From: Hemileia vastatrix
Taxonomy: Eukaryota; Basidiomycota; Pucciniomycetes; Pucciniales; Zaghouaniaceae
Direction of reading: 5' to 3'
DNA: 64,000 nt
Assembly (NCBI GenBank): GCA_030280995.1
Contig: JASXTE010000019.1
Location: 7,799,501 to 7,863,500 of the forward strand
The notes beneath the pieces are model-generated. The model worked only from the letters and a program-made list of their open reading frames with translations. It made no database searches and was not told the origin of the DNA. The translations under genes and the position numbers were made by a program. This document shows, in pieces, positions 6,285-58,994 of the stretch (within the stretch, counting starts at the first letter, position 1; each line of letters opens with the position of its first letter).

Positions 6285-6325
6285 CACCACAGAAAAAATG
6301 GGGGGGTATTGCTAGCAATACCCCT
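6285..6325 (+). repeat. Left terminal inverted repeat of the giant transposon
   Basis: It reads CACCACAG, an A-rich heptamer, seven G, the palindrome core TATTGCTAGCAATA, then CCCCT. It is the reverse complement of 33281-33321 except for two A/T differences. The palindrome can form a hairpin and may be the transposase recognition core (inference). Confidence 0.9.
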
Positions 6326-8228
6326 TGCTTGAGCTCCGTTGAGCCACAAATCTATGCTTGAATTATGCACACATCATCACCATGTAGGAAATTGTTTGGC
6401 CTTACATTTAGTCAGAGATTTGTCACAGATTGAGCTCAAGATGAACCTACATTGATCACCGTTTGATCTTGTAAAATCCTAATTTGATCATCAGTTAAGC
6501 TCCCTTTGATCTCACTTTGATCTAACATAAGCTTTTGCATATCCAATATGTCAACTATTCACTTTCAAAAAGATTCATAATGAATTTCACATGGAATATT
6601 AGAAACGAAACCAGTAATTTTGAGTAAATGTCTCATCAAAATGATTAATCTACAACAAAATACCATCAAAATTCAATCTGATTACTGAAAACTTTTGTTA
6701 AAATGACTAATAGATATTTAAATTGGAAAATAATATTCCATTTCTCAATTTCAAATTCAAAATATAAATCCTCGTTTGAAATGTGAATTTTGTAGATTCC
6801 TTGCCTTCCTATATTATGAGTAATATTTGAGGTATTTTACACCTTTGTAAATATGGTGTTGTGCTCCTAGAAATTATCTCTGTTTCAATTCAACTTTATT
6901 GAAGCTTGAGTCCAGAATGATAAATATTTTATAACTATTTTGAGAAAAAAGTCACTAGTAATGAATTTAGCCTTTTATCTGTCCTTTATTAAACCTCACT
7001 TAATCCTACTTAAATCCAAATTGACCCACAAAAACCTTATTTGGGATATTTTTTAGCCCAGGATGATTCAAGATTGGAGCAAAATATTATTTTAAATATC
7101 CAATATGCCTATTGATTAAATTTCTTCAAGCTTACTTTAAATTCACATTAACATTAACTTTCACAGGAAATATTAAACACAAATCTTGAAAATATAGTAT
7201 TTAAAATCATAATAAATATAATATAATATGCTTACAACAAAATTTTCTTTCTGGATTAATTGAAACGAAAAATTGTTCATTTGTGAAAATAGAAAAATAC
7301 TATCCATCCTGAATTTAGAATTCATTTTTAAAAATTTAATGCCCCCTCACTTTCAAGTTTATCATGTATTTCGAAAATTATATTTTTAATAATTTTGTGA
7401 ATAGTACACCTGAGATATAAACTTGGGGATATCAAAAACTAAAACATCAGCAAATTGAAATGTTTTTTATTGTTATGAATGGAAATAATGATTGAAAAAC
7501 ACCATTAGAGCAAGTTTGATTTTGAATAATAGGCATACTTTCTCATGTAAATTTCAATAAAAATAATTTTTATTCTTACTTAAGTTGCGGTGGATACATT
7601 TGAGCTCAAAAAGAATTAAAATTGATAAAATAAGACTTCTATAGTTCATATTCAAAAATGAAATCACCCTTCATTATCTACCTGTAAACTATTTTAAATT
7701 GAATAATTTCAAAGTCAGTATATACTGATGTTATTTTTTCTTCTAAAAAATTTATTATATAGATTAATAGTCATAAACAGTTGACATAGATGTTAAATTT
7801 ATATAAGCAATCTTTAATTCATAAAATGATAAAACTATCTTTTATGTAAAAAGTGATGAAGGAAAAAAATATTATTAAATTTTTGATGCACTATCAATAA
7901 AATTGAAGATAGAGCATATCAAAAGTTTAAACTTAATTTCAATTTTGATATCATCATTTTATTTTATTTTACTTGAGTAGAAAACAGATTTTAAATCTCA
8001 ATATAATTTTAAATCCCATTAGTTTGTAGATTTCAACATTTGAAACTATGAAATAAATATTTATGAAAGAATTTTACAATATTTGCCCTTCTAAAAACTC
8101 ATAAATCCAACTTCAAATCTTCTAACCTTCACAAGTAACCACAATGCATTCTGAAAATACTCTATATTTAAATAATTAAAGGTAAATAAAATTATGTTTT
8201 TATTCTTTATTTCAATTTTTGATAAATA

Positions 8229-8259
<31 letters not shown>

Positions 8260-9967
8260 ATTTCTTAAAAAGTCTAAGAGGGAACTTAATAGTGGTTTTG
8301 GCATTAGATATATAGATTCAACTTTCAAAAAATTTGTTTGGAATAAATTACAAAGACAAAAAGGATATATTTTGATGAAAGAATACTGATTTAGGTTCTC
8401 TTAAAATATTATTAACCATTTTTATGGAATATTAATCCATGTTTATCATTCTTTATGATATTATCATAGAATTTTTTCCTTTTTTAATATAATGATTTTC
8501 TATTGTGTGGTATGTAGGCTAAGATAAGTTTAAAAGATTTATTGAAGATATATATACCAGAAACAGTATAATCTGTAGATTTATAACTATAACTTACTTT
8601 TCTGATGTTTTACATCATTGATAAGTAGCTCATGCATTACACAAGTAAATAATTATAGTCTCTGGAAATAATTCCTTGTGAATTTCAATTTTTTTGTTAT
8701 TCTTAAAATCATTACTCAAATAAACTAAAATTTCTTCAAATATTGATTGAAAGAAGGAGTTACAAAATCTTATTTTGTAGTTATAAAAGTTTGAGTTATT
8801 TTTCATATTATCAAGTATAATGAAAATTTGTAAATTTTAACTTGAAAACTAGTGATCATAGCAAAGTAATACTGGAAGAATCAGATAAAAAGGGTGGAAT
8901 AAAGTCATAGCACAACAGGAAATGATACAAAATTGTTGATTTTTATCTCATAAAATTCAACTTATTTTTAACATATTTTACCACCTTTAGATAATGTTTA
9001 GTGGATTTTAACATTATTATAACAAGCAAACTTAACAATGTTTTGATTTTTTTAACAAAAATAAATATTGTTAGATCATTTTTTTAAAAAATATGACTTA
9101 TTTTTATGCTTTATCTACAATAGTTAGTAGTTTTTTTTGCAGAAATTACTTGTTTTGATATTCTATTTTTGAATTTTTTAAGAGACTTCATTGCATTAAA
9201 GTTTTGTAATAATTTTTCATTAAAGCATCATATTTTAAATCTAGAGAATTGGTTTTGAAATAATATATATTTTCATGTTAATTGACTCATTATTTTTGGA
9301 TTGATAAATTATGTTAAAATTGGGATTGCTTATTTCTAGTGAGTGTACATCATAGTTTGTTTTCAAATCAAAGATTAATAAATGGTGAAATTTGGTAAAA
9401 CTCTAAATATCTTTTAAACCTTTTTGATTTAAATAATGTTTAATGTTATGTAATCATTCTATAAGTAGAACACAGTTAAAATCTGATAATGGTACATTGC
9501 TTTCAATTTCTAATACTAAAATTCTATTCTACTTGAAACAATGTAAACTAAAGCTTGGTATCTCATAAGAAACTCACAATTTTCAAAAATCATATTTCCA
9601 ACTTTTTAAACATGATACACATTAAAATATATTTTTAGAATAATTTCCTAATTAGTTTCAAATACTAGAAAATAATGACCTCAATTTATTTTAATACTTA
9701 AACCATTCTGATGAGTGAATTTCACAATCCTCTAAGTAACATATGGTTACCATTTATACACATATGCATGATTTCTCCTTTTGTTTAATTTTAGCTGAAT
9801 CTAAAAAGTAAAATCACATGTTGAATATCATCTATAGATAAACTTCTTATATTAGAAGCTAATATTTCATATGAGAAATTTGTTATTGAGTTTGGGAAAC
9901 ATTAATAAGTGTTGGGTATTATAATTGAGCCATTTATTCAAGTAAAAAAAAAAGGATGACGTTCTAA

Positions 9968-10006
<39 letters not shown>

Positions 10007-12160
10007 AAAATTAATTATATAGTAGCATTTAACCATGTTTTTATACTAATGTCATATAAAAAAAGGGATTGAACTAAAACTTTCAGTAAAGAAAATAAAA
10101 ATAAGATAAGTTAATATTCTTGTTTATATTCTCATATTTTTGAAATGGCTTACTTAAGGGAGAAAATTATTTGGTTTTAGAGTACAAGAATTTCTAGATA
10201 AAAATCTTCACAATATAGTTTGACCCTCTAAAAAAGAAAATTCCTTAAATTTTACTATCACATTTTATATATTTGTTAAGTAATAGAAAATGGAGTTGTG
10301 TCTTTGACAATGAAGCTTTAGAAAATGAAATAAATGATTTAAATTTATAATATAATTTTTGAAACAATAAATCATGTATTCAAAAAAAATTATATATCTT
10401 ACAATCAAGATAACAGTATTAATTAAGCAACTCTAACAACTTTGGAAAGAAACAAGAAAAAAATAATTAGTAAAATGCATAAGTTATTTTTAGAATTTAA
10501 GGAAACTTAATAGCTCTACCTGTAAACTAGCCTTAAAGCAGGTTTGGATTTAACATGTGGAAATTCATACATAGTACCCTTCCATCATTAGAGCAGAATA
10601 AAATTTATGTAGTTTTATTTTTTTAATTTATAATAGTATTTTTATTTTTGGCTTTTTCATTAGTATAACTATATATTTTTTAACTTTTTTGTTTTTCATA
10701 ACATAAGTTCAAAGCTGCACATCACTACTTCAAGATGAAACTCCATATAATGTAATCAATGAATGATATATTATAATGAATTTTACTAGAGACTTTTCAA
10801 AAATGGTGATTAAGAATACTTATTATAATTTTTTAAATTTTTATTATTATTCTATCTCTTGAAAGGAGATGGCCATATCTCAATTTAATTAGTTTTTCCT
10901 CAGAAAAATTTATTCTTGATCTAAATAAAATTGCATCACTATTAACTAGATGTTATTATACAATTTTAACAATTTTTTTATCTGAACATAGTTGAAAGTA
11001 TGTATAAATTAAAGTGTTTCCACATAGTCTTACTATTATCCCACCATTATTTTCACATTTAGATTTCATTATAACTGTAAAATAAGTTTTTCAATAATTT
11101 TAATAATACCTTAATATTTAATAATTTAGTTACATAGTAGATTTTTTATCCTTTTTTTTTATGAGGCTTATTATATAAACACTACTTTTAGATTTTATCC
11201 ATTTTGATGTCTGATAATTTAAATTTTCATTTAACTACCCAAATTATATCAAAAAAAATTCAAAAGTATATTTTTTTAATGTACTCTTTTTGATAAACTT
11301 ATCATTTCTTATAGGTTATTCTTCAACTATTTATTGTAATTAACTACCCACTCATTTATGGTCTGTTATTGTTGTTCATTACATACAGACAAAATAAGGA
11401 TACTCTCATATTATATTGGAGTTTTAAATTAAAAAGTAAATACTAGTGGCTGGTATTAAATATGAAGTTGTTATAACTAAGTTGAACATTAATTAATTAT
11501 TAAATGGCATTTTATATTACAAATTTTATTGAATGTATATAAAAATAACACTCAAGAAATATATATAAGATATATATATAACCATTGTATATCAAAAATG
11601 AAGTACTTATCAACATGGTCTTTTTAAATGATTTTCAAATTTACTTAAAGAGACATTAATATTACCAATTCAAATTTTATATCAAATACAACAATATTAT
11701 TATTTCATTTTTAATTATTTTACAAAAAATTTGAGTTTCAAAGTAATTTAATTCAGTATTTAATGAATGTTTTTGAAAAATATTTTTAAAAATAGAAATA
11801 ACCCCTCACAAAAAAAAATATAATTTTTTTTACTTACAATTTGCACCATATTTCTACCCTTAAAATATTTGTATTCTTCTAACAAAAATATTTTTTAAAT
11901 AAATTTAAAATTTTTTTCATTATTCAATTACAAAATGTCAAATTTATAATTTATTTTACCTTACTAAAAAATTTAGCTGAAAATTTAATTTTGTATTTCC
12001 AAAAAATAAACTTAAATGTCAAAAATTAAAAAAACAAAATTATAAATATAATTATGAGAAAGAGGTAGATTAAATTTATAATATTCATATAAAAAAAATT
12101 CATATATTTTATGGTGTTTGAATTTTAAATTTAATGTATTAAAAATTAATTATTAAATAA
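6326..12160. other. Non-coding AT-rich left arm of the giant transposon
   Basis: I see no credible gene in these 5.8 kb on either strand. The first 200 bp after the TIR carry repeated GAGCTC/TTGATC-type words typical of CACTA subterminal repeats. The rest is AT-rich sequence with (TA)n tracts near 8230-8262 and 9977-10003. Confidence 0.6.
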
Positions 12161-12958
12161 CCAAGCCAAATGAAATTGGCTTGGATTTTTGGTATCACTA
12201 GAACTTATTTTTTTTCTTTTACTCACATTTTAATTTTTAATTTTTTTTTTTTTCTACATTTCTCATTTTTTTTTTTATGATTTTTAATGTTTTTAAGACC
12301 GAAGTTGCTTTCAAACAACTTCGGTCTAACGTTTCTCTCACTTTCCCACCAGATTGCACCTGGTAGGGAAAGTCGCTTCCATTTTAGAGACCAAAGTCCC
12401 TTGCAGGGACTTTGGTTTCTCTGTGTGCATTGCACAGCCAGAAAAAAACTGGCTGTGCAATGCACTGCATGCAGCACATGCAACACGCATTGCTGCTGCA
12501 AGTAATGCGCATTGCATGCAGCAGAAATGCGCGTTGCATGCAGCAGCAATGCAGGCTGCATGCAGCACATGCAGCCTGCATTGCTGCTGCATGCAACGCG
12601 CGTTTCTGCTGCATGCAGCGCGCATTGCACATGCTGCGCATATCTCATGCAGCTGACTTGATATCAGCTGCATGAAATATGGTAGCGATTGTGCAACGCG
12701 CGTTACTTGCAGCAGCAACGCGCGTTGCACACTGCTTTGGCCACCTCCCAGCCTAGTAAATTAGCTGGGAGGGTGGCAAACATTACAGCAAGCAATCGAA
12801 GTCGCTTTTAGCGACTTCGATTGCTTGAAAGAGACACTTCCAGCCAGGGGAAACCTGGCTGGAAGTACTAAATTGCAATGTAAGGGACCCAAGCCAATTT
12901 CAAAGGCTTGGGTCATAAATTAAGGTTTCTAAAAAGCAGCCAGTATAAATCTGGCTGC
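12161..12958. repeat. Array of about 12-13 consecutive hairpins
   Basis: Back-to-back perfect or near-perfect inverted repeats lie at about 12161-12184, 12296-12327, 12343-12368 (one bulge), 12391-12415, 12427-12463 (15-bp arms), 12512-12617 (about 50-bp arms, one mismatch seen, 5-base loop), 12645-12675, 12691-12730, 12738-12778 (one bulge), 12789-12827 (18-bp arms, 3-base loop), 12836-12866, 12886-12914 and 12936-12958. Arms differ from hairpin to hairpin, so this is not one tandem repeat, although CAGCCAG and CAAGCC words recur. The large central hairpin is built from GCATGCAGCAG words. The array is much GC-richer than its surroundings. Open frames here on both strands are by-products of the symmetry. 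Confidence 0.85.
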
Positions 12959-14002: not shown

Positions 14003-15915
14003 ATGGAAGAAGATTTTATAGACATGTAAGTTCATGTTTTGCTTATCATTTTTCTATATTTCTTTAATACTTTCTCAACCATTATATTATTAATATGAAA
14101 AGTAAAACATCATCTCGTACTTGCTGAAAGCATACAGGATAATGTTTTGCTTTTCATAATAATAATTAGATTGTTTGTACTTTACCTTTAATTTATTGAT
14201 TTTTAAGTTGTTTCAAAGTCTCGTACTTGCTGAAAGCATACAGGACAATGCTACAATTTAAAAATTAATAATTTATTGAAGTATAACTTTCTAAGTCAAT
14301 ATATTGATCAGAGCAAGATTTTTCATTTTATATATGTGGATATCATAATTCCGTAAATTTTTTAATATTACTAGTGTATTGGAGTTATACTTTCATTATA
14401 TTATTAATATTAAGTGTAGAGCCAAATCTCGTACTTGCTGAATGCATACAGGATAAAGCTATACTCTTTATATGTATAATTTAATAAAGTATACCTTTGA
14501 AACGCTTTCTTAATATTTGAAATAAAGAAAAAGTATATAAATTTACTAATATGTAGATATGCTAACTTTTGTATTTCTAATATTGAAGATATGATAAAGT
14601 TAAAGGTATCATTGACTGATAATTGAAATTATGTTACTATTTTCTAATTTTTGATTTTTTTCTATTTTAAATCAAAATTGAATTCTCTTAGGATTGAACC
14701 ATCAATGAGTAACGATTTGAAAAAAAAAAAACCGCCAGGGAAGAACTCTAACAATAGGTGGGCGAAAGACATTGCTACTGGAATGAAACTTGTAAACGCT
14801 CTTGGAATGGATACAAACGGGAAGAAGCCACATTTCTATGCACGATCTTATGCAAATAATATGACAGATTGCAATAATTATTACAATTTTTTTCCTGGAT
14901 GTAGTATTTATAAACCAAAAGGTGTCTTAATACCTAATGTTCTTGTGCAGACTTTTGAAATTCATGAGCTCAAAGAACTAGATATGTTAGAAGCTACGGT
15001 GCGATGCATTAAGGATCTTTCTTACTGCGAACATGAAATTAAAAATAATGGTTATCATCAAAGAGCTGGTGGTTTTGGAAAAATGTTTGGTGGTGGCTTT
15101 ATTTTAGATAGAAAGAAATCTTTACATATTCGTAAGTATCACTTTTTTTAATTTAAATACTGAATTTTTGAATGCTTTTCCTTGCAGATGAATACACTGA
15201 TGATATTGTAAAAACGGATGAATATAAAAAACGAATGAAGAGGATTGCAATGTACTTTGAATATTTTTTTAAAAAAATATCATATGTAAAGTACAATGAG
15301 GCAACTAATCTTTGCGCAAAACTTGGTATTCCTGGATTTTCAAAAGTTTCTAGTGAAGAAGACGGTGTACCGTTTGCTAGTAATTTAACTTGGACATCTG
15401 GAGGGAATGGTAATGGGTTCTCTAATGAGGTTCATCTCGATAAGGATGCAAGTGAGTATACTTTAGGAATATTTTTTCCTAAAGATACAGAAAAAAACAC
15501 CATTCATATGAAGTATGATAAGACCCAACCACGACAAATAGGTGGAGAACTTATGTTTCCCGAAATTCGAAGTAAAATCAACTTTGAAGCAACTAATGGA
15601 ATAACAGTGACATTATGGCCTGCCAATCAACTAAGGCATTTTACCTCAAGATGTCATGAAATTCCTGGCTTCACTAGGATAGGTTCTTCTATTCAAATCA
15701 GCACTAGACTTTTTCATGCTATAGAAAAGCTTAATGTTTTTGATATTGATATTTCAGAATACTTAGAAATTAAAACAGAAAAATTTAGGTTAGAATATTT
15801 GATTAGTGCTTTGAGAGTTTTTTTGAAAAGAGATGACTTAATAGAGGAAGAAATAGAATCAGCAAAGTATTATTTATCTAATGTTAAGACAAATCTAAAA
15901 AATCTAGATATATAA
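14003..15915 (+). CDS. TET/JBP-like 2OG-Fe(II) dioxygenase
   Basis: My model has three exons: 14003-14025, 14692-15131 and 15188-15915, with introns GTAAGT...CTTAG and GTAAGT...TGCAG. It gives 396 codons in phase throughout. The first exon is less certain; a simpler start is the ATG at 14705. The second intron (56 bp) is firm because it restores the frame. The catalytic core shows an HxD pair in NEVHLDKD (His about 237, Asp about 239), followed by GGELMFPEI, a distal His in QLRHFTS (about 305) and a downstream Arg in TRIGSS. This is the double-stranded beta-helix pattern of fungal Tet-like 2OG-Fe(II) oxygenases. That superfamily oxidises 5-methylpyrimidines in DNA or RNA. Fungal TET/JBP genes are known to travel with KDZ and related transposons, which fits this location inside a transposon. 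All expected iron and 2OG ligands appear present, so it may be active. The substrate is not knowable from sequence. Confidence 0.8.
14113..14458 (+). repeat. Three copies of a 32-bp motif in the first intron of the dioxygenase gene
   Basis: Copies at 14113-14144, 14219-14250 and 14427-14458 share TCTCGTACTTGCTGAA, then a variable base, then GCATACAGGA. They are nearly identical while the intervening AT-rich sequence is not. Each ends in a pattern resembling a branch point plus acceptor (GCTGAA...ACAG), so cryptic acceptors are one explanation and protein-binding sites another. Confidence 0.8.
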
Positions 15916-16714: not shown

Positions 16715-19147
16715 TTAATTTATTGAAAGGCTATGTTTAGCAAAAAAAGGTGATACTGGCTGAATGGAGCTCCAGTGATTAAGAAAATCTGCAGAAATAG
16801 CCCTAGCAATTCCCGGAGGACTTGGGGTATCAAATTTTAAAGGAAATGGATCACACTTGCCTATAAAAGGTTTTATTAATGTTAAAATATAGTTATTTAA
16901 ATTTTTCCAAATTATTTCTTCCATCAAATGATTTTTTTTTTCATGTAAATTAAGAAACTTAACTTCTGATATTACCTCCAAGCAATCAGCTGCTGAAGCC
17001 AATCTATGATCTTGAGAGCTCAGAAATAAACCACGGACACCATCAATTATATAGAATGTGAAAGATTGATATCGGTGGTGGGAGTATTCAGAATTTATTT
17101 TGTTTAGTGCAGCCTTTTGTTTCTCTCTCCTTATAGTCAGTTCAGTATTTTCGTTTTTCTCACTTGATTGTTGAGCTTCACTAGTCTTGCCACTTGATAT
17201 TGTTGCAGCACAATATTTTGATTTAAGAATGATAATTGACATAATTATATCAATGATAATATTGCTGATTTGAAGAAGAGTTGACATTGATATATCACGG
17301 GTTTGAAGTGCAGTGGGACCAACTTCTAAGCCATCAGAAATCGGACTCTTCAGATTTGAAAGGTGAGCTAGAAGCTGAAGACCACGTTCAATTGGACAAT
17401 CTGAGTTAATGTTTTGATGTGATGGAAGCTGGCTGAATTCATGTGCGGTCAGATAAAGTGAAGATGATATAAGAGATACCCATGAAGAACGGCAGTGGTC
17501 ACTTGGGATCATTAATCTCATGAGCATTTGGATAAGATTGGATTCAGGGTGATCCGTTTTCTTTGTTGAGGAAAGAATTTCAGTATTTAAACCATCAGGA
17601 TCACATAAATCTTCCATTTTTTTGAAATCAATATTATCGAGTACCCATAGCTGTGAGCTATCAATCTCTAAAAAAATATTTGCTACAAAAGGAAAAAAAA
17701 AATAAGTAAAAGAACAAAAGTCAAGACTAAAAATTATGGTAACTTACATAACTCAGTAAGTTTTGAAAGCCAATCTTCTCCACAAGATTTTTCCCAATGA
17801 AAAGTAAACATTGGAATATTTGACATGGGTTCTTGGGAATAAGTAGAAGAGCGTAATTCGAGGAGAGTAACAATTTCCAACCACGACCTTAGGACCTTTG
17901 CCGTGCTGATTCTACCTTTATAAAAATTATGAATTTTACAGAATTCCTCCTGCAAATCAGATTCTTTTAGAACTGAGGGTGAATAAGTTAGAGGTTTTTT
18001 CGATATCTTGATTGGAGTTGATTTCATTGGTAGAGAAGCTTTCAAAGAGGTCAAAGTAGGTAATTTAGGAGGTGATGGGTATTGCTTCTTAGAAATGAAG
18101 GAATTCGGTGATGAGCTGTTTGAATCATCATCTTTATCAAACATATCAACATGTCTTGAAGAAGATTTTAAACTTTGCTTTTTTTGATGAACAAGCATAG
18201 CTTCATATTCTGATAGTTGATCATCGCTATTTTCATTGCTCTTTTCATCATCTTCATCAGGGAGAGGGCGTTTATGGATGGAACAATCTACAGCAGGTGA
18301 GTTTCTGGTACAAAATATCAAAAGAAAGATAAAAAGTACAATATGTAAGCAATAAAAGAGATATATGATTGAATTTTAAAGATAAAAGAATAACAATAAA
18401 AAAAAAAGGAAACAAGAATATACTCATTATCAAAACCTTTGCTTTTTTTTTGAGATTTATTATTTGATACATCAGAAAATTTATTAGCAGAAGCTGGTTT
18501 AATACGTCGAACAAAAGAGGAGCCTTGGGATAATCTCTTTTTCTTGGAGCGGATAACAGGTGTTTCAAGATTTTCCTTAGAAGTTGAAGCATGAGTTGAA
18601 GCTGATGGTTCATCTGTCTCATCATCATCCCTAATGACAATGACTTCATCAGGAGGAATCATACCCTCCTCATAAGCTACAAATATATATGAAGAAAAAA
18701 AAATATTAATAATCTTATCTACTAATTTAAAAGGAGACAAAAAAGGTGATGAACATACATTTTTCAAGGCTTTTCACATATTGGAGTAATTCATTACAAG
18801 GGTTAGATAAATATGAAGGAGAAGGATTATTGTTAAGGATCTTGACAAGCTCTTCTGTTTTATCTCTAGCCAATTCAAGTAAATTGCGATACTGAACTCT
18901 CGTTATTTCCTGCCTCTCATTGCTAAGTACAGGAGGGTTAGGTGCCATGCCATGTGGCAGACATGGTGCAAGCTCAAAAGCTTCAAAGCGAGTATCAATC
19001 AGAGAGTGGGATGAAACACATTTGGGTGCTGGAAAATCAAATTTTTGAAAAAAAAAAGATATAGAACATAAGTGAAATATATAAATTAAGAGAGAGGAAC
19101 ATGATATACATACAAAGTGGAGGTGTAGGATTTTGTATACTAGACAT
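16715..19147 (-). CDS. Unknown five-exon gene of the giant transposon (693 aa)
   Basis: Exons on the minus strand are 19147-19114, 19028-18759, 18676-18424, 18304-17748 and 17682-16715. All introns are GT-AG (85, 82, 119 and 65 bp), and the phases chain to exactly 694 codons including the stop, which strongly supports the model. The start is the ATG at 19147 (MSSIQNPTPP); there is also an in-frame ATG at 18948. I do not recognise a known domain. The N-terminus contains a compact FELAPCLPHGMAPNPPVL segment. The middle (about residues 110-330) is Ser/Asp/Lys-rich and likely disordered, with basic patches (RSKKKRL, KKSKG). The C-terminal half is more hydrophobic and helical. It converges with the dioxygenase gene. 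The intact splicing pattern argues it is a live accessory gene of the element rather than debris. A DNA- or chromatin-binding role would fit but is a guess. Confidence 0.75.
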
Positions 19148-20179: not shown

Positions 20180-22120
20180 CTGATTAATTTCTATCGAAAT
20201 TAATTTTGAGACTAGCATATTGAATTTTAGCTATGACCAAGTACTGTAAGTGCCATGGTTTGTATTCAATATATTGGTGTTGAAATTAATTTTGATAGGA
20301 ATCAACAAGTATCAGATGGCACCATGCATGAAACACTGACAGAAACCATCAAATTTATGAGGCAATGAACCTCATAATTTCGATCGAAATTAATATAGAC
20401 CCCTGCATATTGAATACAAGCCATTTCACATGGACTACACAGACATAGATAAAATTCAACATGCATGGCTTAATATTAATTTTGATCGAAATTAACCAAG
20501 GCATTAAAACATCAATTTTTATATGGTGTACTTGATCAAACCAGTTTATCTAACTGCTTAGCTTACCTATACTTATAGGAATTTTATGCATAGTCCATGT
20601 CCATATTAATTTCGATCGAAATTAATGTTGACTAATACATAATGAATACATGCTATGCCACTTACACTTTCCAGGCATAGCTACCATTAAATATGCCAGT
20701 ATCAAAAATTAATTTCGATCGAAATTAATGAGCATGATAATCATGAATTTCTGGAGTCAACTGCTTATTTTTATGCATGGTGCCTTGCCAACATTAATTT
20801 CGATCGAAATTACTTTTGATACTGGCATATTGCATGTATATATGCCTGGAAAGTGTAAGTGGCATAGTGTGTATTCATTATGTATTGGTCAACATTAATT
20901 TCAATAGAATTTAATATTGACATTTTCATATTGAACCCAAACCAGCAAACGACCCAAAAAATTCTTCATAAAACTGCTCATTAATTTCGATCGAAATTAG
21001 TGAGCACCATATACATATTGAATGGTAGTTATATCTGGTGTGTGTAAGTTGTAAAGCTTGTGTTCAATGTTTATTGGTCAACATTAATTTTGATCAAAAT
21101 TAATGAGCATTTTGATCATGAACTTTTTCAGTCAGTTAGTTGTTTCAATGCATAATGGCATTCCAACATTAATTTTGATCAAAATTAATGTTGAAATGAT
21201 ATAATGCTTTTTTGCATGACATGTAAAGGACGGCAAGTATTTTTAAGTATTGAAATTTACTATACATGTTGAGGGTAAATATAAAATTTACATATCCATA
21301 TTAATTTCTATAAAAATTAATGTTGACCAATACATAATAAATAGTAAATATGCCTGGCTAGTGTAAGTGGCATAGCTTTTTTTCAATCTGCACTTGGCAA
21401 CATTAATTTCGATCGAAATTAAGGTTCATGATTATCATCAATTTATTCAGTCAGTTGCTTACTGTTATGCATGGTAACATGTCAACATTAATTTTAATAA
21501 AAATTGAATTTGACATGCTACCAAGCATTTTTATGTAAGATGAAAAGTAGGGCACTCTATTGTTAAGTAAACACATTACAATGCATATTGAGCATGTAAA
21601 TATCATTTACACATTAATATTAATTTCAATCAAAATTAATGTTGACCAATAAACATTGAACACAAGCTTTACAACTTACACACACCAGATATAACTACCA
21701 TTCAATATGTATATGGTGCTCACTAATTTCGATCGAAATTAATGAGCAGTTTTATGAAGAATTTTTTGGGTCGTTTGCTGGTTTGGGTTCAATATGAAAA
21801 TGTCAATATTAAATTCTATTGAAATTAATGTTGACCAATACGTAATGAATACACACTATGCCACTTACACTTTCCAGGAATAGACACCATGCAATATGCC
21901 AGTATCAAAAGTAATTTCGATCGAAATTAATGTTGGCAAGGCACCATGCATAAAAATAAGCAGTTGACTCCAGAAATTCATGATTATCATGCTCATTAAT
22001 TTCGATCGAAATTAATTTTTGATACTGGCATATTTAATGGTAGCAATGCCTGGCAAGTATAAGTGGCATAGCGTGTATTCACTATGTATTGGTCAACATT
22101 AAATTCGATTGAAATTAATA
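20180..22120. repeat. Palindromic satellite: about 20 dyad sites in a larger inverted repeat
   Basis: About twenty copies or variants of a dyad centred on TTTCGATCGAAA and flanked by ATTAA/TTAAT occur here, for example near 20605, 20707, 20792, 20894, 20981, 21083, 21168, 21299, 21403, 21486, 21623, 21723, 21808, 21911, 21994 and 22098. In the best-ordered parts the spacing alternates about 85 and 102 bp, giving a superunit near 187 bp. Sequence from about 20600 to 21110 also recurs in reverse complement at about 22128 to 21640, so the whole block is a large imperfect inverted repeat centred near 21365. Decayed dyads mostly differ by C-to-T or G-to-A at the central CG (TTTTGATCAAAA). No open frame crosses it. 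Confidence 0.88.
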
Positions 22121-22334
22121 TGGATACATAAATGTGACATAAAGAGGTATGGACCATCAATTTGTTGAAAATACATTTTTATATCTCATACATTATTTGT
22201 TTTTCTTAAATAAAATGTTACTCTCTCTCAATATCACTTTATAACATTTACCAAGCTGCTTTGAAAAAAAACAGAATACATAAAATTCAATATAAGATAG
22301 CTATATTACACAGAAGATCACCGTTATACCTAAG

Positions 22335-24012
22335 TTATGATGATGTTGATGCTCTATTAATTGATTCCCGAATCTTTACCAGATCAATATCAGCTCCAAC
22401 CCCAAGTGACTCACGTTCATTCACAGATAATCCTTGCAAAAATGTTGCTGAATAGCAATTCTTGGGGAGGTATTTGGGAACATTGAATATACCATTTTGT
22501 GCAACTGTCCTTTCTGATGACCGTGAATATGTTTTTAATGTTGATTTTTTTTGAGCTGGTGTATGGGCTAAGTCCTTTGTCATCTTATCCATTTTTTTAA
22601 ACAAATCATTGAGTTCAGGATTTCGCCATCCAGGAATAGCTCGGATAGGTGCAGTTGGGGCTGGTGCTGGGCCTTCCTCGATATCAGAGATGCACCTAGT
22701 ATCATGAAAAAGCACAACAAAACCTGGCACATCACTGCAGAGATCTCTTGCTAACTTGTAGCGTGCACTAGCAATCTGAATTCCAACTAAATCAGCTTCA
22801 TAATAACAAAAAGCAAAGTAAAATTAAAAACTTACCTTGGTCCGATAACGTTTTACTTGTGCCCTTGCCCTCTTTTCAATCTTTTCTCTTGCTACCCTTT
22901 CCTCTTCTTGCCCAAACAACCTTATCATCTCCTTCCCCTTATTAACTACCCATTTCTCAATAACACATTGAGTGAACTGAAGCTTTGACTGATCGATTGT
23001 ATTCAAGGTGGTGAGCCATCTGGTACAGTGGTCGCATACTATGCTTCCCATGACTTGATTCCAAGTTGATTCTGAAAAATCACGGCAAGTCCAATCAAAC
23101 GTGAATTTCCGAAAACCTTTTTCTTGCAATTCACGCTCTAAGTTTCTTTTGACAGAAAGTGGGATCGGTGCTCCTCCTTTTAGTCCTCGAGGCTCAGGTG
23201 CTGGAAAAAATTCGGGTAGTCGAATTTTGGATCGCAAGAAGGCTATAGAATTGGTTATCAGAAATTGTCGATCAGCTGCAGAATTGGCACGGTTAGAAGA
23301 TTGGACTTGGGTTAGGACAGTTTGAATGGTTTTTAGTTTGAATTGGCTCCAATCTTTCCAATTTTCAATCTCCAAAGGTGTTGGGCTCGCAGGATATTTT
23401 GATATTTGTGTTGGTCCCCCAAGACAATACTTCAGAAAGTGGTAAATATTTCTATTTAGACTGTCCGAGCTCCTGGGAACATCATTCCTTCTAACTAAGC
23501 CTCTTACAGCCCTTAACCCCCGTTCTCGCTCATGAGACTCTGCTGAATTGAGTCTGTGGTAATCACTGATACCCATAATGATTGAGGGATTCACTAACAA
23601 TTCAAATAAGTTAATTAAATTGGTTATTTTTCAATAAAAGAATACACTACAAATTTTACTTACCTGCTCCACTTGTGCTTGCTCCTTGGTTAGGCTGAGC
23701 AGATGATGATTGGTCTCCGAAAAATTCCCTCAATACTTCACTAGCCCAATCTCTTCCTAGCTGATCAGCTTGCTGATCAGCACTTTCAGAAGCAGAAGGA
23801 TGATTGGGATTAAAATTTCTCGGTTCTGAATGAGACTCTTGGCCTGGATTGGGATTAGGTGGTGGGTTAGGATTAGGTGGTACAGATTGAGATGCATCTG
23901 GAGGTGGATCAGCAGAGGGTGGTGGAGGAGTATTTCCAGTATTAGTATGTTGAGGCGGAAAACAATCAGAATCGGTTGGGTCAACAGACATCCCTTCAAA
24001 ATTATCATCCAT
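22335..24012 (-). CDS. Accessory protein A (unknown family, 515 aa)
   Basis: Exons are 24012-23664, 23593-22836 and 22775-22335, with introns of 70 and 60 bp. The total is 516 codons including the stop, in phase throughout. Exon 1 encodes a Pro/Asn/Ser-rich acidic N-terminus (MDDNFEGMSVD...). Exon 2 carries the conserved core, including FTFDWTCRDFSESTWNQVM and a basic helix ending EKRARAQVKRYR. Exon 3 ends with a signature NCYSATFLQGLS. The gene at 28893-30014 is clearly a diverged paralogue, sharing FRKFTFDW-like, WNQV and LPxNCYS motifs and an intron at the equivalent place. I cannot assign a domain. It lies downstream of, and in the same orientation as, the transposase, so co-regulation is possible. 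A DNA-binding or transposase-partner role is inferred only from location and charge. Confidence 0.78.
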
Positions 24013-24429
24013 AATGAACTGTAATAAAATAAAATAAAATAAAAATAATCAGTTGTTAAAATTTATACCTATCAAAGCTAAAGTAAAAAAAGATACTATG
24101 TATATAGTCTTGTAAACGTGTATGTTCTCTTGTCGAAAAATAAAGTGAATAATATATAGCTATCAGCTAAAGTTGGAAGGTCAAACTATTTATAGTAGAT
24201 GAATGAGCAAGAAGATCATTCATTAAGTAAAAATTTTATCATATTTCTCATTATCATGATTTTATTTCTTTCATTCTTACATTTAAGATAAAAATGACTC
24301 ATTGAAAGCATGGGTTCTCTCGCAATAAAAGCAACCAAAGTAATTGTTCACTGGTTTATGATAAGGTAAGTTGGATGCATTGCATTTTTTAATCGAGCAT
24401 TGAATTATTTCTTTCACCATTTACAAATA

Positions 24430-27400
24430 TCACCAATCCTACAAATTTCCCGAATCCCAAATTAACACAAAGATGTTAGTCAACAGAAAATAAATTTGAT
24501 TAATTTTTTCACTCACTACTGTCTGCAGTCCAATGGCAGTGACAACCTCGTCTTTGATTCCAAACATTCCTTTTTTGTGCTCGACAGTAGCTGCATGTCC
24601 AATTATTGCATCTTTCTTAATCACAATTTGAGTTGCTTTGGCTACTCTTACTAACCGACAATGCACTTGTGGGAAAAGCTCATAGGGATCCTTTGATGTT
24701 TCTTCTGGACGGAGCTCTTTGAAAGGACTTACTATTAAATATATTTGATCAATCTCTTCCTTTGATCTGAAAAGATCATCAATTTGCCCAAACTGGCTAT
24801 CTTTTCCATAGTAGAATTCAATTGTTGAATTAGCAATGTGTCGATGGTAACTAGTAAACCTCTTTCCATGTATCAATATGCTTGCTACATTTTCAACTAC
24901 CCGATCCCCACTTTTCTCCGATGGTGTCAAAGCCCGTCTTGAAGTTTCTTTTCCCATTCGTGCCCTTACCCATTTAGTAAATAATGCCATACTTAGATGG
25001 ATCCATTTGTTTTGTTTATCGAGATCAATATGGATTTTTTTAGTCTCACATTGATCATTATCTTCAGCTTCACCAAGATCTAATACCCTAGACTTCCGAT
25101 ACCAATGTTTGAGCATTGTTAGCGGTATCTCTCCTGTGGTAAATATTAATAAATTAGCACAGCTGAGTTTTTAAATCATTTCTTACAAACATTACATACG
25201 TGGATGGTGATTGTTTGGAATTTCAGATAATATATGATTCACCCGCTCTCCAGACCAAGTAGCTGTACCTGATGGTGGACCAAGACGCTTTATCATTTCA
25301 GGATAATGTTGAGTGATATGCAGATTTGGCTTTGCATTAATATTCTTCCAACCCTCTTCAAGGCACTCACGATACTCTAACAGAAATTGATCTAGATCTT
25401 TAAGCTCATTAGTCTGTATATTTTTTAATGTCAAAAAATTGGTGATCGAGCATAATGTTACAAGTGACTTGAGAAGATAATATTCTCTTGGTTTATCAGC
25501 TGAGGAAGCTGAAGATTCAGATTCTTTAAATTTTTCAAACCAAAGGGGTATAAGTGACAAAGGGAAGTAGAGAGTATACAGCATGTGCCATTCTGCTGCC
25601 TTGAGGGATCCTGCCTTTTTAGATCCTACTGATTTTGGAACTCGTGTTAGCCAGGAAGGTCTTCTTACTTGATCAATCATCTTCCATACAACCTGTAGCT
25701 CTGCTGCTGTGATTCGTGGATTACTACTACCTTCATTTTCTTTCTCCTTACCTTTCCTTTTATTTTCTTCATCTCTAGCTGTCTCATTTGATGAGTGAGA
25801 TCCTTCACTCTGTGATATGCTAATGCTTCTTTGCCTTAAGTTATACAATGAATTCCTACTGTCACTGCTTTGAGACTGTACTGAGGCCACATCGCTATAT
25901 GGAGGAATAAATTTGGAGCTGGATGACCTACTCTGGCTTCTTGATCGATTTGTTCCCAATCCTTCATTATCTAGTCCATGATGACTTGATGACTGTCTTG
26001 AACTCGTACGTCTTTGCCGCTTGTGCTGTCTCGTGTGTCCTGTATCATCATCATCATTATTCGTGGTGCTTAAGCTACTTCTACGTTTTTTCGAATGTTT
26101 GTGCAGTGAAGTATCAGAAAAGAAATCATCATCTTCTTCTCTTACATGCCAATTTTTATCCTTTTCCAGCTTTCTTTCTAGATCTTTTGCTGCATTTTGG
26201 ATTTGAAAATAGCTTAGACTGTGATCTTTTAGGTTGCCAAGCATATGTGAATGCATAACATCAATTGAGCAATATTCAGTTGGACGCCAATATTCAAGGT
26301 TATTCAGCTCACTCCATCGTACCCCATGATTTTGAACAATTGATACACGCTCCCAATGTGACTTAGAATTTTTCCACTTTGTTGCCCAGCACATATGATC
26401 CTCATGATTCCGTAATGAAAAATTTCCCACATTCTTTTCACTAATTTCATCTTTAGAGATATTACAGAAAGAGCAGAACATTTTTGCAGAGTGACTCGAA
26501 AAGCCAGCCAATTTTCGTATTGCAGGAATGTCACCTATCAAAGAGAACAATGCAACTCTTAATTTCCGGCCTCGTGGATAAAGATGTGTCTTTTCAATCA
26601 ATATACCATCCCATAGAGTTTGTAGATCATTAACCAGTGGTTTTAGAAGGTGATTAAGCTGTTCACTTGTGGGTTCTGTTGGTCCGGGTATAATAGAATA
26701 CAAAAAAAGATTTTCCATTTTGTATCTATCTTCTTGAGGTAGGTTCATACACACCATCATAATATTGCCTACAGACTTCTGATGACCTCCAATCCTATTG
26801 CCACCAGGCCTAAACCAGTCGACATATAAAGTAAACATTAAGTTGCCTGAAGTTATCGTATATTCATCATCATTGCTATCCAGAGCTGGAGTGGTTATGG
26901 GAAAGTTTTTCCAAATTGAACCATCACAAACATCCTTCATCAAATCACACTCTACACGTTCTGCCACAGGGGTTTTCTTCTCAATCAGAAGCTCAAATTT
27001 GAACAGTTTGATCTTTTCCTTAAGCCAGTCGATAAAAGAATGGTGATGAAATGTTTTAAGAGATAAGTATTTTACATGTTCTTGATGTTCCTCCATCAAA
27101 TACAGCCTTTCATCACATTTAACTGCAATTTGTCCTGCTCCAAACATTTTTAAATAGCGCTTTGATGATGAAAGAAACGGTTGATTGCAACATAGTATAG
27201 ATGGTTGAGATTCAGAGTTATACTCATAAAGAGCAAAGCATTTAGGACAGCATGTTTTAGTGAAAAATGATTGATTGAGCTTTAATCGACTAAAAACTGT
27301 ATCTATCGAGCGTGGGACCAGGCGGACAATGCTATCAGAATCCAGTATTCCACTATCACCTAGAAGTTTGAGCTTCTTAATTTCTTCATCCAAAAATTGA

Positions 27401-27817
27401 GTACAACCTTCTTTGCTCAAATGATGAATCAGAGAAAGCTTTGCTGCCTGCCACATAATTATTTGGCTATACCGTTCCCCGAGATTTGAGTTTCTAGAGA
27501 CTGTTGAAGATACTTCTGCCCCCAATAGCAACTGCCCCTATGTAATAAATCATTGAAACATCATAAAGACTTTAATTCTCACATTGAACTATAGATATAC
27601 AGCTTACTGTTTCTGTGGAGCGGGAACTTCCAATGTTAAGTGGATTGTTGGAAGAAATAACCATCTGGGCCTTCCTATTTCTTTCCTCTTGATGTTTTGC
27701 ATAAGAATTAGAGCTTTTGAAAGCCATACCAACTTCAAAGGACCCAGAAGAAGTTTGATACTTTCTATTGACACATCCAAGATCTTGACATTGACATACA
27801 TGAAAAAATGGAGGCAT
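24430..27817 (-). CDS. Tnp2/Plavaka-like CACTA transposase
   Basis: Exons are 27817-27608, 27537-25200, 25133-24517 and probably 24438-24430. If the last intron is retained the frame ends at 24439 instead. The product is about 1055-1080 aa. The N-terminus has a Cys-rich zinc-binding start (HVCQCQDLGCV) and a second Cys pair (CCPKCFALY). The central catalytic region shows LYVDWFRPGGNRIGGHQKSV, MNLPQEDRYKMEN and SIIPGPTEPT, followed by SHSAKMFCSFC and a CSIDVMHSHMLGNLKDH segment, the fungal Tnp2/Plavaka signature. Residues about 530-680 are a low-complexity Ser/Arg/Lys insertion. The C-terminal part includes TWSGERVNHILSEI joined across an intron to IPLTML. It catalyses cut-and-paste excision and insertion at the TIRs. 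All exons are open with no stop, so the element may still be mobile. Confidence 0.85.
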
Positions 27818-28892: not shown

Positions 28893-30014
28893 ATGAACCC
28901 TAGTAGCTCTTACTTTCCTCATGGAAACCTGCCCACAAACACAAGAACACTTAATAGAATTTTTAATGAGACTTTGCCTCCATTCAATTCTCACTTTTGT
29001 AGATCTATACACAATTTTTGTCGTTCACTTTTGGATATGTCACCAGAATCAAATGGATGGAAACAAAACCCTACTGAAGAGCAATTAGACAGATTTTCAT
29101 CATTCGACATGAATTCTTGCAACATTGCCTTTGAACTACCTCATCCAGAATCAAATTCAGCGGTTTCAGAAAAGTTTCCACCAATTTTCCGTGAATCTTT
29201 TATTGAGCACCTTCGCATGTGTGGTTTCCCAGGATCAACTTTCGCTTGGAACCTAGATTGGTTTGACAAATGGAACCAGGTCTTGGCAAATATTCTCATT
29301 AAACACTGGGACAATGCCTTAAAAACCAATAATTTGATTGCATATCCAATTGACTCAACTCAAATTAGCTTCTCAAATCAAACAGGAGTTCTTCACCGTT
29401 GGTTTTTAGGTCATGCTGATAGATTAAGACTTGGGAAGGATTCTCATAGCTCTCAAGAAATAATCAAAGTGAGAAAGCATAAATATAGAATAAAAAAAAA
29501 AGTATGAAAATCCCTTTTTTTTCAACCGTTTTTATTTATGACCTTTATTTCAAATAACAAAGATTCTTAGAATTCAGTTAACCGAACTAAACTTCTTAAA
29601 CAACTTCCACATTGTGAAACTTATCACAACCTTTTCACAAACATCAAATGTTGTTCAGACACCGAAATTGATAATGATGGATCGTTAAGACGTATCTTAA
29701 TGCAATGGAGGTCTGAAGATTTTTCTAAAGTTGCACAATATCTTGACCAACAACACTTTGATATTCGAGATAATTCAACCTACTCTGGCAGTGTGCTAAA
29801 GGACTTGGCCTTGTACAAAAGAATCAGTTTGGTTTCAACATTATCCCCTAACCTTAATCCTTCTCATGTCCCCCGGGGTTTGCCGAATGACTGTTATTCT
29901 CCCTTATATCTTGCATCTCTAAATCCTCAACAACTCAGACTTTTAAATCCTCAAAATCCCATAAATTTACCTGCTCTCCTTGAAATTCTTTGTTCCTCTA
30001 ATGTGAGTGATTGA
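28893..30014 (+). CDS. Accessory protein B, diverged paralogue of A (350 aa)
   Basis: There are two exons, 28893-29501 and 29571-30014, with a 69-bp GTATGA...CTTAG intron, totalling 351 codons including the stop. The start is the ATG at 28893 (MNPSSSYFPH); the frame is open further up but only to a TTG. Shared features with accessory A are a CGFPGSTFAWNLDWFDKWNQV core (A has GFRKFTFDW...STWNQV), a basic helix before the intron (VRKHKYRIKKK), and the C-terminal signature LPNDCYSPLYLASL. It lacks A's Pro-rich first exon. The last intron occupies the homologous position in both, so the pair descends from one gene by duplication. It is transcribed divergently from the transposase. Its 3' end overlaps the SNF2 model by 17 bp tail to tail. 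Function unknown. Confidence 0.75.
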
Positions 30015-32426
30015 CAAACTCCCTTAATAATAGGTTTGCACACTCATACTCCTCATTTCCACTGTTTGGGACACTTAGACTTGAAAACAAAAACATAATT
30101 TTAATGATTACTATTATCATTAAAATTTATAGAAATGAAATTTGGCTTACATTGTTAGCTCCATTTTTTTCCTTTGAATCTTATACATGCTGAATTCTAT
30201 ACTTCCTTGTACAAAATAATTCAAAACATTTACTTCATTTTGCTGCCCCATTCTATACAGCCGATCAACAGCCTGTTGCTCAACTGCTGGATTCCAATTT
30301 GGCTCCTATTTCAACATTGAACATATAAAAAATTTAATATTTTTGTTCTTAATATGAAATAAAAGACATTGAGCTCACCATTATATATACATTTTGAGCA
30401 CACCTGAGATCTATACCCACTCCTGCAGCCTGAATCGTTCCAACCAAAACTTGGCAATTTTTATTAAAATGGAATTCATGCATATTTTTGTCTCACTTTG
30501 TCCGGCTGAGTTCACCCGTAAGCTGGGTATACCTAATATTGTGGTCATCTAAAGCCATTTTTATTCTATTTTGAAATATTAGAAAATTGTTTTTAATAAG
30601 CCAACACAATTTTGTAAAACAATTCATTATAGAATCACTTACATCTGCAAAAAGTCTGCAAAGTTGGAGAATATAACAGCTTTTGGAAAATTTATATCCC
30701 TTTCACCAGACAAAAAGTTTTTTAAGTGGCCTATAAGATGACAAATCTTTGCGGAATGCTGCCAGGTGAAATCAAAAGTTGGAGTTTCATCCAGATTTTC
30801 GTAGATTGGATGGTTGCAGAATTTTCTTAAAATCATCAGCTCTCTTAGAAACTCAGATGAGTCCCAAGGGAAGTCAGTGCTTCTGGAGGGCCCATATCGC
30901 TCAGTGAATCCTTCTTGAAGCACATCAAGTTTAGACCTCCATGTATCTGCTAATTGAACCGATATCCCCCTTTGAATCTTTTTTGGAAGAGACAAAATTG
31001 CATCCTTTGTTCTACGTAGGCTTATGACTTTCATTAAGTGATTGATTGATTTAATAGAATTAGCCTTTCCTTTTTGCAAACCTGGAAAAAGGAAATTCTT
31101 CCATAACCAGTCTTCTTGCCACTTTTCGATTCTAAGAAAAAATATGAGACTTTGAAGGTCAGTGGGCCTGTTCTGAAGTGGAGTTCCAGTCAAGCATAGT
31201 CGGTGTTGGGATTCCAAGTCAAATATTGTTTGAGCCCTCTGCGAGTAAGGATTTTTAATGTAACTAAAAGAATATTTATAAAAATTGATAATAAAAATTA
31301 AGTTTTAAGTTTTAGATATAGAAATGGGCACTAACTGAGCTTCATCTAAAACAACTCTATACCAAAAGAGCATTTGAGTCACCGGTATCTTTTTTTGGCT
31401 TTGATTTTTTGACATCGTTGGGCTAGCTATTTCATAGGTCGTTAAAACAATAGCAGTGTCCTGTAGCTCATTGACATTAGTATTTTGACAATCCTTCCCA
31501 TAAAGAACCTTGAAAGGAAGTGCATTATCTTCAAAGTGCACACTTATTTCATTGATCCAATTCGATAGTGTTGCCAGGGGGCATATAATCAGTGTGGCTG
31601 AACTCCGATTAATACCTTCTTGATTTTCTGATACCTGGAATTGTCTTGCTTCACCTTGAGTTGCACTTATAAGAGAAAGAGTTGAAAGTGTCTTTCCCAA
31701 ACCCATATCATCAGCAAGTATTGACCCGTTTCCTTCAGGCGGCAATTGATTGTTAGGAAACTGATCTTTATAGTCATCGAATCCAGTTCTAAGCCAATGG
31801 TTGTCCTGGTGCCTCCACATGATATCCAACTTTTCCTTTAACATTCGTTCATTGTCAATCATAAAATTTATTGCTTGAAGTTGATGTGTTTTGAGAACTG
31901 TTTTGATTCCTCGGATAAGTTGATCAGCTTTCCAATCTTGAGTACTCTGAGATATTTGGAAAGAGCCTTCAAAAATTACATGTGGGATATTAAAAAAGAT
32001 AGTGGAGTCGTAGTTCAGGATTGGACATAAATCGATTTGTGCAGAAGAAAATGCTTCTTTAGCAAGACTGATTAGTGTACTTGAAGAAAAGAGGCATCCC
32101 CAAAGTTGATACTGATTACCAAAAACTGGAACCAAGTAAGCATGAAAATAGAAAGGCTTCATAGGATTCAAGGCACTTCTTTGGTTTAAATGGTGAGATC
32201 CAGAGCCAATGTCACCCAATAGTGGTCCAATGTGCTGACTCTGCACTTGAGAAAGATTACCAACAAGGGTTGGTTTTCTTTCTTCAAATAGTCCAAAAAT
32301 ATGAACATTCGAATGGCCTCGCTGTAAAATTGTGGGGGTCGGTGAGTTTTGAAATCTTGAAATTACATTCATATAAATTTGATCGATTGTTATTGAGAAC
32401 TGTCCAACACATCTGAGACTTGACAT
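29998..32426 (-). pseudogene. SNF2 ATPase/helicase, Rad5/Rad16 type, with one in-frame TGA
   Basis: Exons are 32426-31336, 31263-30643, 30565-30379, 30305-30151 and 30079-29998, all GT-AG (or GTTAGT/GTGAGC) introns. Phases chain to 712 codons including the stop. Motifs appear in order: Walker A ADDMGLGKTLSTL (about residue 245), motif Ia ICPLATLSNW, a DEAH box (split by the first intron, followed by YIKNP), motif III CLTGTPLQN, and helicase C-terminal motifs QLTGELSR, QAAGVGIDLRCAQNVYIM and DRLYRMGQ. The single defect is a TGA at 30493-30495 between RTK and DKNMHEF, where relatives would have a sense codon; a CGA-to-TGA change is the simple explanation. It could be a nonsense mutation, a readthrough site or a sequencing error. 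Everything else is intact. The N-terminal 200 residues lack a recognised HIRAN or RING domain, so it is a short version. It would remodel chromatin or translocate on DNA. Confidence 0.8.
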
Positions 32427-33280
32427 ATTAAGTAAGAATAGTATCTGAAGATAGTGGTTGTTAAAAGATGAATTGAAGCAAAAAATGAAGAATCAGTTTT
32501 GAATAAAACGACAAAATAACTTTTTAGCATATGCTATGCTAAGCTCATAATTCTTTCACATGTATTATTATTATCTTTTTAATAAATATTGGAAGTAAAT
32601 CAATGATAACTGAAATGAATAATATGTCTTAAAAATAAATCTTGAGCCTATAGAGTAAATTTTGGTTTGTGGAGGAAGAAAAATTTTCTCAATAAAAATG
32701 TGCATTATTGTTACATTATAATCACAAAATAGAATAATTTCACTCTTATTACACTTATTTATGTTTCTGTCTAATAGTAAAATGCTTTAGATGTCAGTTC
32801 AAAATCCAAATTGAAACTACTACCTAGAACGATATCTTGATACTAACATACTTTTTGTAAGTCTTTGGAAAGACACTTATGGTGATCTCAATAATATTAA
32901 AATTGATTTGAATTGTATGTTTTATCAAATATCTATGTAGTCTAGTGTAATAATTGAGATACTACAGTTTAACCTTCTGTTACCAACTTGGCAAGAAAAT
33001 ATATGTAGATATTCTTAGAACGAATATCAAATTTTGCTTTCCACAAGATGGGAAAGTGAATATTATGATATGTTAAATGATATGTTCAAGCTTTGCTCAA
33101 TCTGTGCTCAGCTCAAAATCAAAGTAATCACCAAGCTCCAAGAAACCTGTGATTGAGTTTGGTTGAACCTAGGTCTAACTGATTACCAAATCTTTGTCCA
33201 ATTAATTTAAATCTGGTTTCACAATGAACTCCCAACAGCCTTCCAACAGCTTTCCAACCACTTCCCAACATTTTTAAATG
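32427..33280. other. Right subterminal region of the giant transposon, no gene seen
   Basis: AT-rich sequence upstream of the SNF2 gene. The last 200 bp contain repeated CTCAATCTG, GCTCAGCTC and AAGCTCC words that echo the left subterminal region, consistent with transposase-binding subterminal repeats. Confidence 0.55.
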
Positions 33281-33321
33281 AGGGGTATTGCTAGCAATAC
33301 CCCCCCAAATTTTCTGTGGTG
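33281..33321 (-). repeat. Right terminal inverted repeat of the giant transposon
   Basis: This is the reverse complement of 6285-6325 at 39 of 41 positions, ending CTGTGGTG. The interrupted LTR resumes at the next base. Confidence 0.9.
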
Positions 33322-58985: not shown

Positions 58986-58994
58986 ATCAGGAGA

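What the first reader, a model, noticed from the sequence alone, without database searches (positions are those of the whole stretch)
6285..33321. A 27-kb CACTA/Plavaka-like giant transposon with intact ends and target duplication
Seen directly: 41-bp TIRs (39/41), CACCACAG termini, and a 3-bp duplication demonstrable because the interrupted LTR has an intact sister copy in the same window. Known: CACTA elements make 3-bp duplications and carry subterminal repeats, and are usually well below 20 kb. Here six multi-exon genes and two structured non-coding arrays travel together. The transposase exons are fully open and the host LTR pair is almost identical, so the insertion is recent.
Basis: partly seen in the sequence, partly recalled or inferred. 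Interest (0 to 1): 0.92.

Follow-up and report, generated by a model that had tools for sequence, protein, structure and literature searches.

The report
Giant rust-like transposon carrying demethylase gene
A 27,000-base "jumping" DNA element, freshly inserted inside another one, carries its own cutting enzyme plus a gene for a DNA-demethylase-like enzyme and a chromatin-remodelling motor, and most of its body lacks the mutation scars seen in most of the mobile DNA around it, as if it shields itself from the fungus's silencing system.

Summary
6285-33321 is one 27,037-bp DNA transposon with 41-bp ends (39/41) and CACCACAG..CTGTGGTG termini, sitting in the 3' LTR of a Ty3-type retroelement with exactly 3 duplicated bases (ATA), measured against two sister LTRs. 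The transposase is Transposase_21, with DDE and zinc residues present; RAG1 is its best structural match. Termini and duplication fit fungal EnSpm/CACTA; "Plavaka" is not supported.

TET-carrying EnSpm elements are already published from rust fungi (Kojima 2025). Unusual here: size, SNF2, a duplicated unknown protein, and a 2-kb array of twenty 22-bp palindromes. The host Ty3 element keeps 4 of 97 expected TCG sites, the hypermutation footprint reported for Pucciniomycotina; the transposon's coding DNA (130 of 280) and most of its noncoding DNA show no TCG-specific loss. This fits TET-based self-protection but does not prove it: the gene-free left arm is TCG-poor, and two other stretches of the window keep TCG too. 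Host unnamed (rust inferred); genome-wide copies could not be searched. New variant of a known kind.

The parts
387..1563 (-). intact LTR of host Ty3-type retroelement, sister of the interrupted LTR, 1177 bp
   Evidence: chromodomain and Tf2-like SH3 in 1685-2443 minus
5233..6284 (-). first piece of the interrupted LTR (1052 bp), ends in ATA
6282..6284 (.). target site duplication ATA, left copy
6285..6325 (+). left terminal inverted repeat; contains perfect 22-bp palindrome GGGGTATTGCTAGCAATACCCC at 6303-6324
6326..12200 (.). left arm with no gene found, 22% GC, CpG O/E 0.11
12457..12629 (.). GC-rich short repeats forming an inverted repeat (59-nt arms, 5-nt loop), strong predicted hairpin
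14705..15915 (+). TET-like 2OG-Fe(II) dioxygenase gene, exons 14705-15131 and 15188-15915, 384 aa; HxD at 225-227 and H293
   Evidence: PF20515 E=2.2e-23; model; motif positions
16715..19147 (-). gene P2, 5 exons, 693 aa, no Pfam match at E<=0.1
20183..22119 (.). array of 20 copies (up to 6 mismatches) of 22-bp palindrome ATTAATTTCGATCGAAATTAAT, spacing mostly 85-88, 101-103 and 130-132 bp; contains a 506-bp inverted repeat (20600-21104 / 21619-22124, 97%)
22335..24012 (-). gene P3, 3 exons, 515 aa, unknown, paralogue of P5
24430..27817 (-). transposase gene, main exon 25200-27537; Transposase_21; D240, D336, C355/C358, H429, E764 (numbering of the frame 25192-27537)
   Evidence: last tiny exon uncertain
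28893..30014 (+). gene P5, 2 exons, 339 aa, paralogue of P3 (BLASTP 2e-10)
   Evidence: one search gave an alternative end with a third exon
30147..32426 (-). Rad5-like SNF2 ATPase gene; in-frame stop at 30493-30495 in the C-terminal helicase lobe of this copy
   Evidence: SNF2-rel_dom 5.8e-58, RAD5 best PDB match 5.8e-25, stop seen
33281..33321 (-). right terminal inverted repeat, same 22-bp palindrome at 33282-33303
33322..33324 (.). target site duplication ATA, right copy
33322..33449 (-). second piece of the interrupted LTR (128 bp), followed by the retroelement's own TATAT duplication at 33450-33454

Best explanation
A recently transposed, 27-kb, TET-carrying EnSpm/CACTA DNA transposon of a fungus (probably a rust). 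A RAG1-like DDE transposase cuts at the CACCACAG ends and inserts with a 3-bp duplication (ends and duplication shown; activity inferred). The cargo is best read as an anti-silencing kit: the TET-like dioxygenase oxidises 5-methylcytosine in the element's DNA and the SNF2 ATPase opens its chromatin, so that the element's gene-bearing body escapes the TCG hypermutation that marks most of the retroelement DNA around it (enzyme families and mutation contrast shown; causal link inferred). The palindrome array is probably a binding platform for an element-encoded dimeric protein, perhaps P2, P3 or P5 (inferred).
For: Ends and 3-bp duplication against two sister LTRs. Transposase_21 3.3e-15; in the alignment with 12 homologues D336, C355, C358 and H429 are invariant in 13 of 13 rows, the first D is present in 11 of 11 rows that reach it and the last E in 4 of 4; the 43 Foldseek matches at E<=0.001 are all chains of RAG recombinase entries, next BbRAGL. 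PF20515 Tet-like 2.2e-23. SNF2 5.8e-58. Kojima 2025 describes TET+ EnSpm with CAC..GTG ends and 3-bp duplications in rusts and proposes the anti-hypermutation role. TCG kept/expected against other NCG kept/expected: element coding 130/280 vs 190/442 (ratio 1.08, bootstrap 0.88-1.36); element noncoding without left arm and array 35/93 vs 60/161 (ratio 1.01, 0.66-1.60); host Ty3 4/97 vs 56/193 (ratio 0.14, 0-0.30); 49-55 kb 2/150 vs 36/299 (ratio 0.11, 0-0.29).
Against: The left arm 6326-12200 is TCG-poor (5/59) and CpG-poor (other NCG 11/81), so protection is not element-wide. The contrast is not uniform outside: Copia frames 21/102 vs 69/205 (ratio 0.61), the 33.6-37.5 kb TIR element 7/83 vs 19/137 (ratio 0.61: most CpG lost in every context, little TCG bias), solo LTR 2/15 vs 12/37 (ratio 0.40), and 60-61 kb 13/30 vs 39/96 (ratio 1.06, no bias); the 38.5-43.5 kb stretch is CpG-rich too. 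So low TCG loss is not unique to the element. The SNF2 gene is interrupted in this copy. No match of the TET exon to a solved TET structure at E<=1, no homologue at E<=0.001 in the protein collection, and its fold prediction failed (pLDDT 36.5). One copy seen; host and methylation unknown.
Confidence: 0.55

Rival explanations
1. An ordinary TET+ EnSpm element, as already published, that is merely long: SNF2, P2, P3 and P5 are passengers and the palindrome array is a satellite without function. The TCG contrast only reflects that the element's lineage was young or gene-like.
For: Class already described. SNF2 is interrupted here. Stretches at 38.5-43.5 kb and 60-61 kb show that other DNA in the window also keeps TCG.
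Against: Noncoding parts of the element outside the left arm lack TCG bias too (ratio 1.01, interval 0.66-1.60). The palindromes are conserved (85% pairwise) while their flanks are not (41% ungapped, 190 pairs; sites were picked by likeness to the consensus, which inflates the first figure). P3 and P5 are open and duplicated.
Confidence: 0.35
2. A composite: EnSpm ends around a region assembled from other nested insertions, so that the 27 kb is not a normal mobile unit.
For: Composition is uneven: left arm 22% GC and nearly CpG-free, 12.3-12.7 kb GC-rich hairpin, right part gene-rich.
Against: Self-comparison found no LTR or long TIR pair nested inside, only the two structured regions and short repeats at 14.1-14.5 kb (alignments under about 60 bp and short TIRs would be missed). 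The unit moved as one into an LTR whose partner is nearly identical, with a matching 3-bp duplication.
Confidence: 0.1
3. A Plavaka element.
For: Published EnSpm transposases of rusts resemble Plavaka; the only named homologue found is from the basidiomycete Earliella scabrosa, 37% identity over 18% of the query.
Against: Termini CACCACAG..CTGTGGTG match neither published Plavaka type (TGT..ACA; CATCA..TGATG).
Confidence: 0.12
4. Assembly artefact joining two distant element ends.
For: Reads were not available.
Against: Both LTR pieces, the 3-bp duplication and the retroelement's outer TATAT duplication fit one nested event.
Confidence: 0.03

Closest known systems
TET+ EnSpm families of rust fungi (Kojima 2025, PMC12730594; parts 1-5 of 7 of the text read, supplement not readable here)
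   Same: CAC..GTG termini, 3-bp duplication, EnSpm transposase resembling Plavaka, TET/JBP-like dioxygenase gene
Plavaka transposons (as described in PMC12730594)
   Same: transposase related; some carry TET/JBP genes
   Different: different termini
16-20 kb En/Spm of Chondrus crispus (seen only as cited in a passage of PMC6431247)
   Same: enlarged En/Spm with several ORFs
   Different: red alga, smaller; genes not compared
VANDAL/VANC anti-silencing transposons of Arabidopsis (PMC10398659, abstract and section list seen)
   Same: possible analogy: element-encoded anti-silencing with tandem-repeat noncoding target
   Different: different transposon class (MuDR, per PMC12730594) and different proteins; no binding shown here
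Starships (listings and passages)
   Same: large cargo-carrying fungal elements
   Different: Starships use a tyrosine recombinase; here a DDE-type transposase with TIRs

Membership tests
EnSpm/CACTA (fungal) | termini CAC..GTG with inverted repeats | tested here: met
   CACCACAG..CTGTGGTG, 39/41
EnSpm/CACTA (fungal) | 3-bp target duplication | tested here: met
   3-bp excess against two sister LTRs
EnSpm/CACTA (fungal) | Transposase_21 with DDE and C(2)C/H motif | tested here: met
   PF02992 3.3e-15; D240, D336, C355/C358, H429, E764; the assignment of the catalytic triad is by motif, and the exact H(3-4)H spacing was not settled
EnSpm/CACTA (fungal) | RAG1/Transib-type fold (CMCT clade) | tested here: met
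EnSpm/CACTA (fungal) | shared subterminal repeats | tested here: inconclusive
   TTGAGC near both ends (3 left, 2 right, inverted); TTGATC x5 left only, CCAAC x5 right only
EnSpm/CACTA (fungal) | phylogenetic placement of transposase with rust EnSpm | not testable with these tools
   reference transposases not held
Plavaka | termini TGT..ACA or CATCA..TGATG | tested here: not met
TET/JBP-like dioxygenase | Tet-like 2OG-Fe(II) domain with HxD..H | tested here: met
   PF20515 2.2e-23, HLD at 225, H293
TET/JBP-like dioxygenase | oxidation of 5-methylcytosine | not testable with these tools
   needs an assay
Rust (Pucciniales) host | TCG-specific hypermutation in repeats | tested here: inconclusive

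The most novel reading that the evidence does not exclude
A giant transposon carries a multi-part, self-targeted anti-silencing machine: an element-encoded protein binds the TCGA-rich palindrome array and recruits the TET dioxygenase and SNF2 remodeller, keeping the coding body free of methylation-driven TCG hypermutation. The gene-free arm far from the array would be left unprotected, which would explain its TCG loss.
Probability: 0.2. Interest if true: 0.82.

Novelty: new variant of a known kind. Interest (0 to 1): 0.6.

Why it matters
Transposon-borne TET genes have been proposed to fight silencing and hypermutation, and the proposing paper says their function is not experimentally validated (PMC12730594). 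This locus is a natural side-by-side: a young TET-carrying DNA transposon inside a young retroelement, with opposite TCG footprints over most of its length. If the pattern holds genome-wide it makes that proposal testable from existing assemblies and methylation calls, and the palindrome array offers a concrete candidate targeting site.

Tried and rejected

Literature: in the listings (open-access library; several lists cut to 6-20 of up to 216 papers) I saw no paper on a CACTA element with an SNF2 gene or a giant CACTA in a rust. Papers: PMC12730594 parts 1-5 of 7 read plus passages; PMC6431247, PMC13066641, PMC12774611, PMC12210899 passages; PMC10398659 abstract and section list; all others listing only.
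Full report
Check of the observation. The 41-bp ends pair at 39/41; the best of 200 shuffles gives 28/41. The element interrupts one LTR of a Ty3-type retroelement (chromodomain and Tf2-like SH3). The interrupted LTR is 1052 + 128 bp against 1177 bp in its intact partner, three more. The third LTR in the window (47782-48959) has an identical TA tract at the site and gives the same 3-bp overlap, ATA; its single extra base lies elsewhere. Outside the whole nest the retroelement keeps its own TATAT duplication; the third LTR is a solo LTR with CTATC on both sides. The LTR pair differs at 4 positions (1050/1054 and 128/128). The insertion at this site cannot be older than the retroelement's, because the intact LTR lacks it. 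So this is one recent insertion of one 27,037-bp unit.

Genes. A simple splice-aware model, trained on the long open frames of this window, gives six genes. On the plus strand: a two-exon TET-like gene (PF20515, 2.2e-23; HxD and the distal H are present) and P5 (two exons; an alternative third exon). On the minus strand: P2 (five exons, no Pfam match), P3 (three exons), the transposase (open frame of 781 aa) and an SNF2 ATPase. P3 and P5 are paralogues (2e-10). The SNF2 protein's best solved match is RAD5 (5.8e-25); its C-terminal lobe has an in-frame stop in this copy, so not every cargo gene looks functional. No transcript data exist here, so exon borders are predictions.

Classification. 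Kojima 2025 reports rust EnSpm families with TET/JBP genes, CAC..GTG ends and 3-bp duplications, and says that no TET+ Plavaka was found in Pucciniomycotina in that study. The present element meets those criteria and fails both published Plavaka termini. It is therefore filed as TET+ EnSpm. The supplement with the family table could not be opened, so identity with one of those families is not excluded.

Noncoding parts. Each end carries a perfect 22-bp palindrome GGGGTATTGCTAGCAATACCCC. Inside lies a 2-kb array of 20 near-copies of another 22-bp palindrome, ATTAATTTCGATCGAAATTAAT (3 perfect, the rest with 1-6 mismatches), spaced mostly 85-88, 101-103 and 130-132 bp. The element holds 13 perfect palindromes of 18 bp or more (2 in the ends, 11 in the array) against 0.35 expected, low-complexity ones left out. 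Palindromes are 85% alike pairwise while their flanks are 41% alike without gaps (190 pairs); choosing sites by likeness inflates that gap. Of 26 CpGs in the array, 21 lie in palindromes. The array also contains a 506-bp inverted repeat, 97% identical, which could form double-stranded RNA if transcribed. Symmetric change in the two palindrome halves was not significant.

Mutation footprint. Pucciniomycotina are reported to hypermutate TCG sites in repeats (PMC12730594). In this window the host Ty3 element keeps 4 of 97 expected TCG sites against 56 of 193 for the other NCG contexts; 49-55 kb keeps 2 of 150 against 36 of 299. The transposon's coding DNA keeps 130 of 280 against 190 of 442, and its noncoding DNA, left arm and array set aside, 35 of 93 against 60 of 161. 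The ratio near 1 in noncoding DNA argues against coding constraint as the sole cause, though its interval is wide (0.66-1.60). The array is above expectation for TCG (44 against 28) and poor in other contexts (8 of 63). Results against a clean story: the 5.9-kb left arm has 5 of 59 and 11 of 81; the Copia frames are intermediate (21 of 102 against 69 of 205); the TIR element at 33.6-37.5 kb lost most CpG in every context with little TCG bias (7 of 83 against 19 of 137); the solo LTR is small (2 of 15 against 12 of 37); 60-61 kb has no bias (13 of 30 against 39 of 96); and 38.5-43.5 kb also keeps CpG.

How it most likely works. Shown: ends, duplication, gene families, array, footprint. Inferred: the transposase mobilises the unit; TET oxidises 5-methylcytosine and SNF2 opens chromatin to counter silencing; a self-encoded protein reads the array. 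The anti-silencing idea for transposon TETs is Kojima's; the footprint contrast, the SNF2 partner and the array are what this locus adds. The array-as-target idea borrows from VANDAL elements, whose anti-silencing proteins bind tandem-repeat noncoding DNA (abstract).

Host. Low GC, CpG loss and the TCG footprint suggest a rust such as Austropuccinia (33.8% GC, passage), but no tool named the genome.

Noticed in passing
33595-37479: A 3.9-kb element with inverted ends of about 365 bp (93% identical) lies 145 bp outside the host retroelement; poor in all CpG contexts (TCG 7 of 83 expected).
   Followed up: partly
47782-48959: Solo LTR of the same retroelement family with a 5-bp CTATC duplication.
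   Followed up: yes
38500-43500: CpG-rich stretch (O/E 0.65) with extreme strand skew and a 23-bp repeat x16 at 40284-40657, in an otherwise mostly CpG-depleted window; no Pfam match in the one long frame scanned (41751-43445).
   Followed up: partly
6326-12200: 5.9 kb of the transposon with no gene found, 22% GC and 8 CpGs; cause unknown.
   Followed up: partly
55950-59765: Copia-type retroelement frames (RVT_2, Pol_BBD, gag pre-integrase) between 169-bp repeats at 55626 and 60786 (99% identical).
   Followed up: no
12457-12629: Isolated GC-rich hairpin (59-nt arms) inside AT-rich DNA of the transposon; could be a small nested foldback element.
   Followed up: partly
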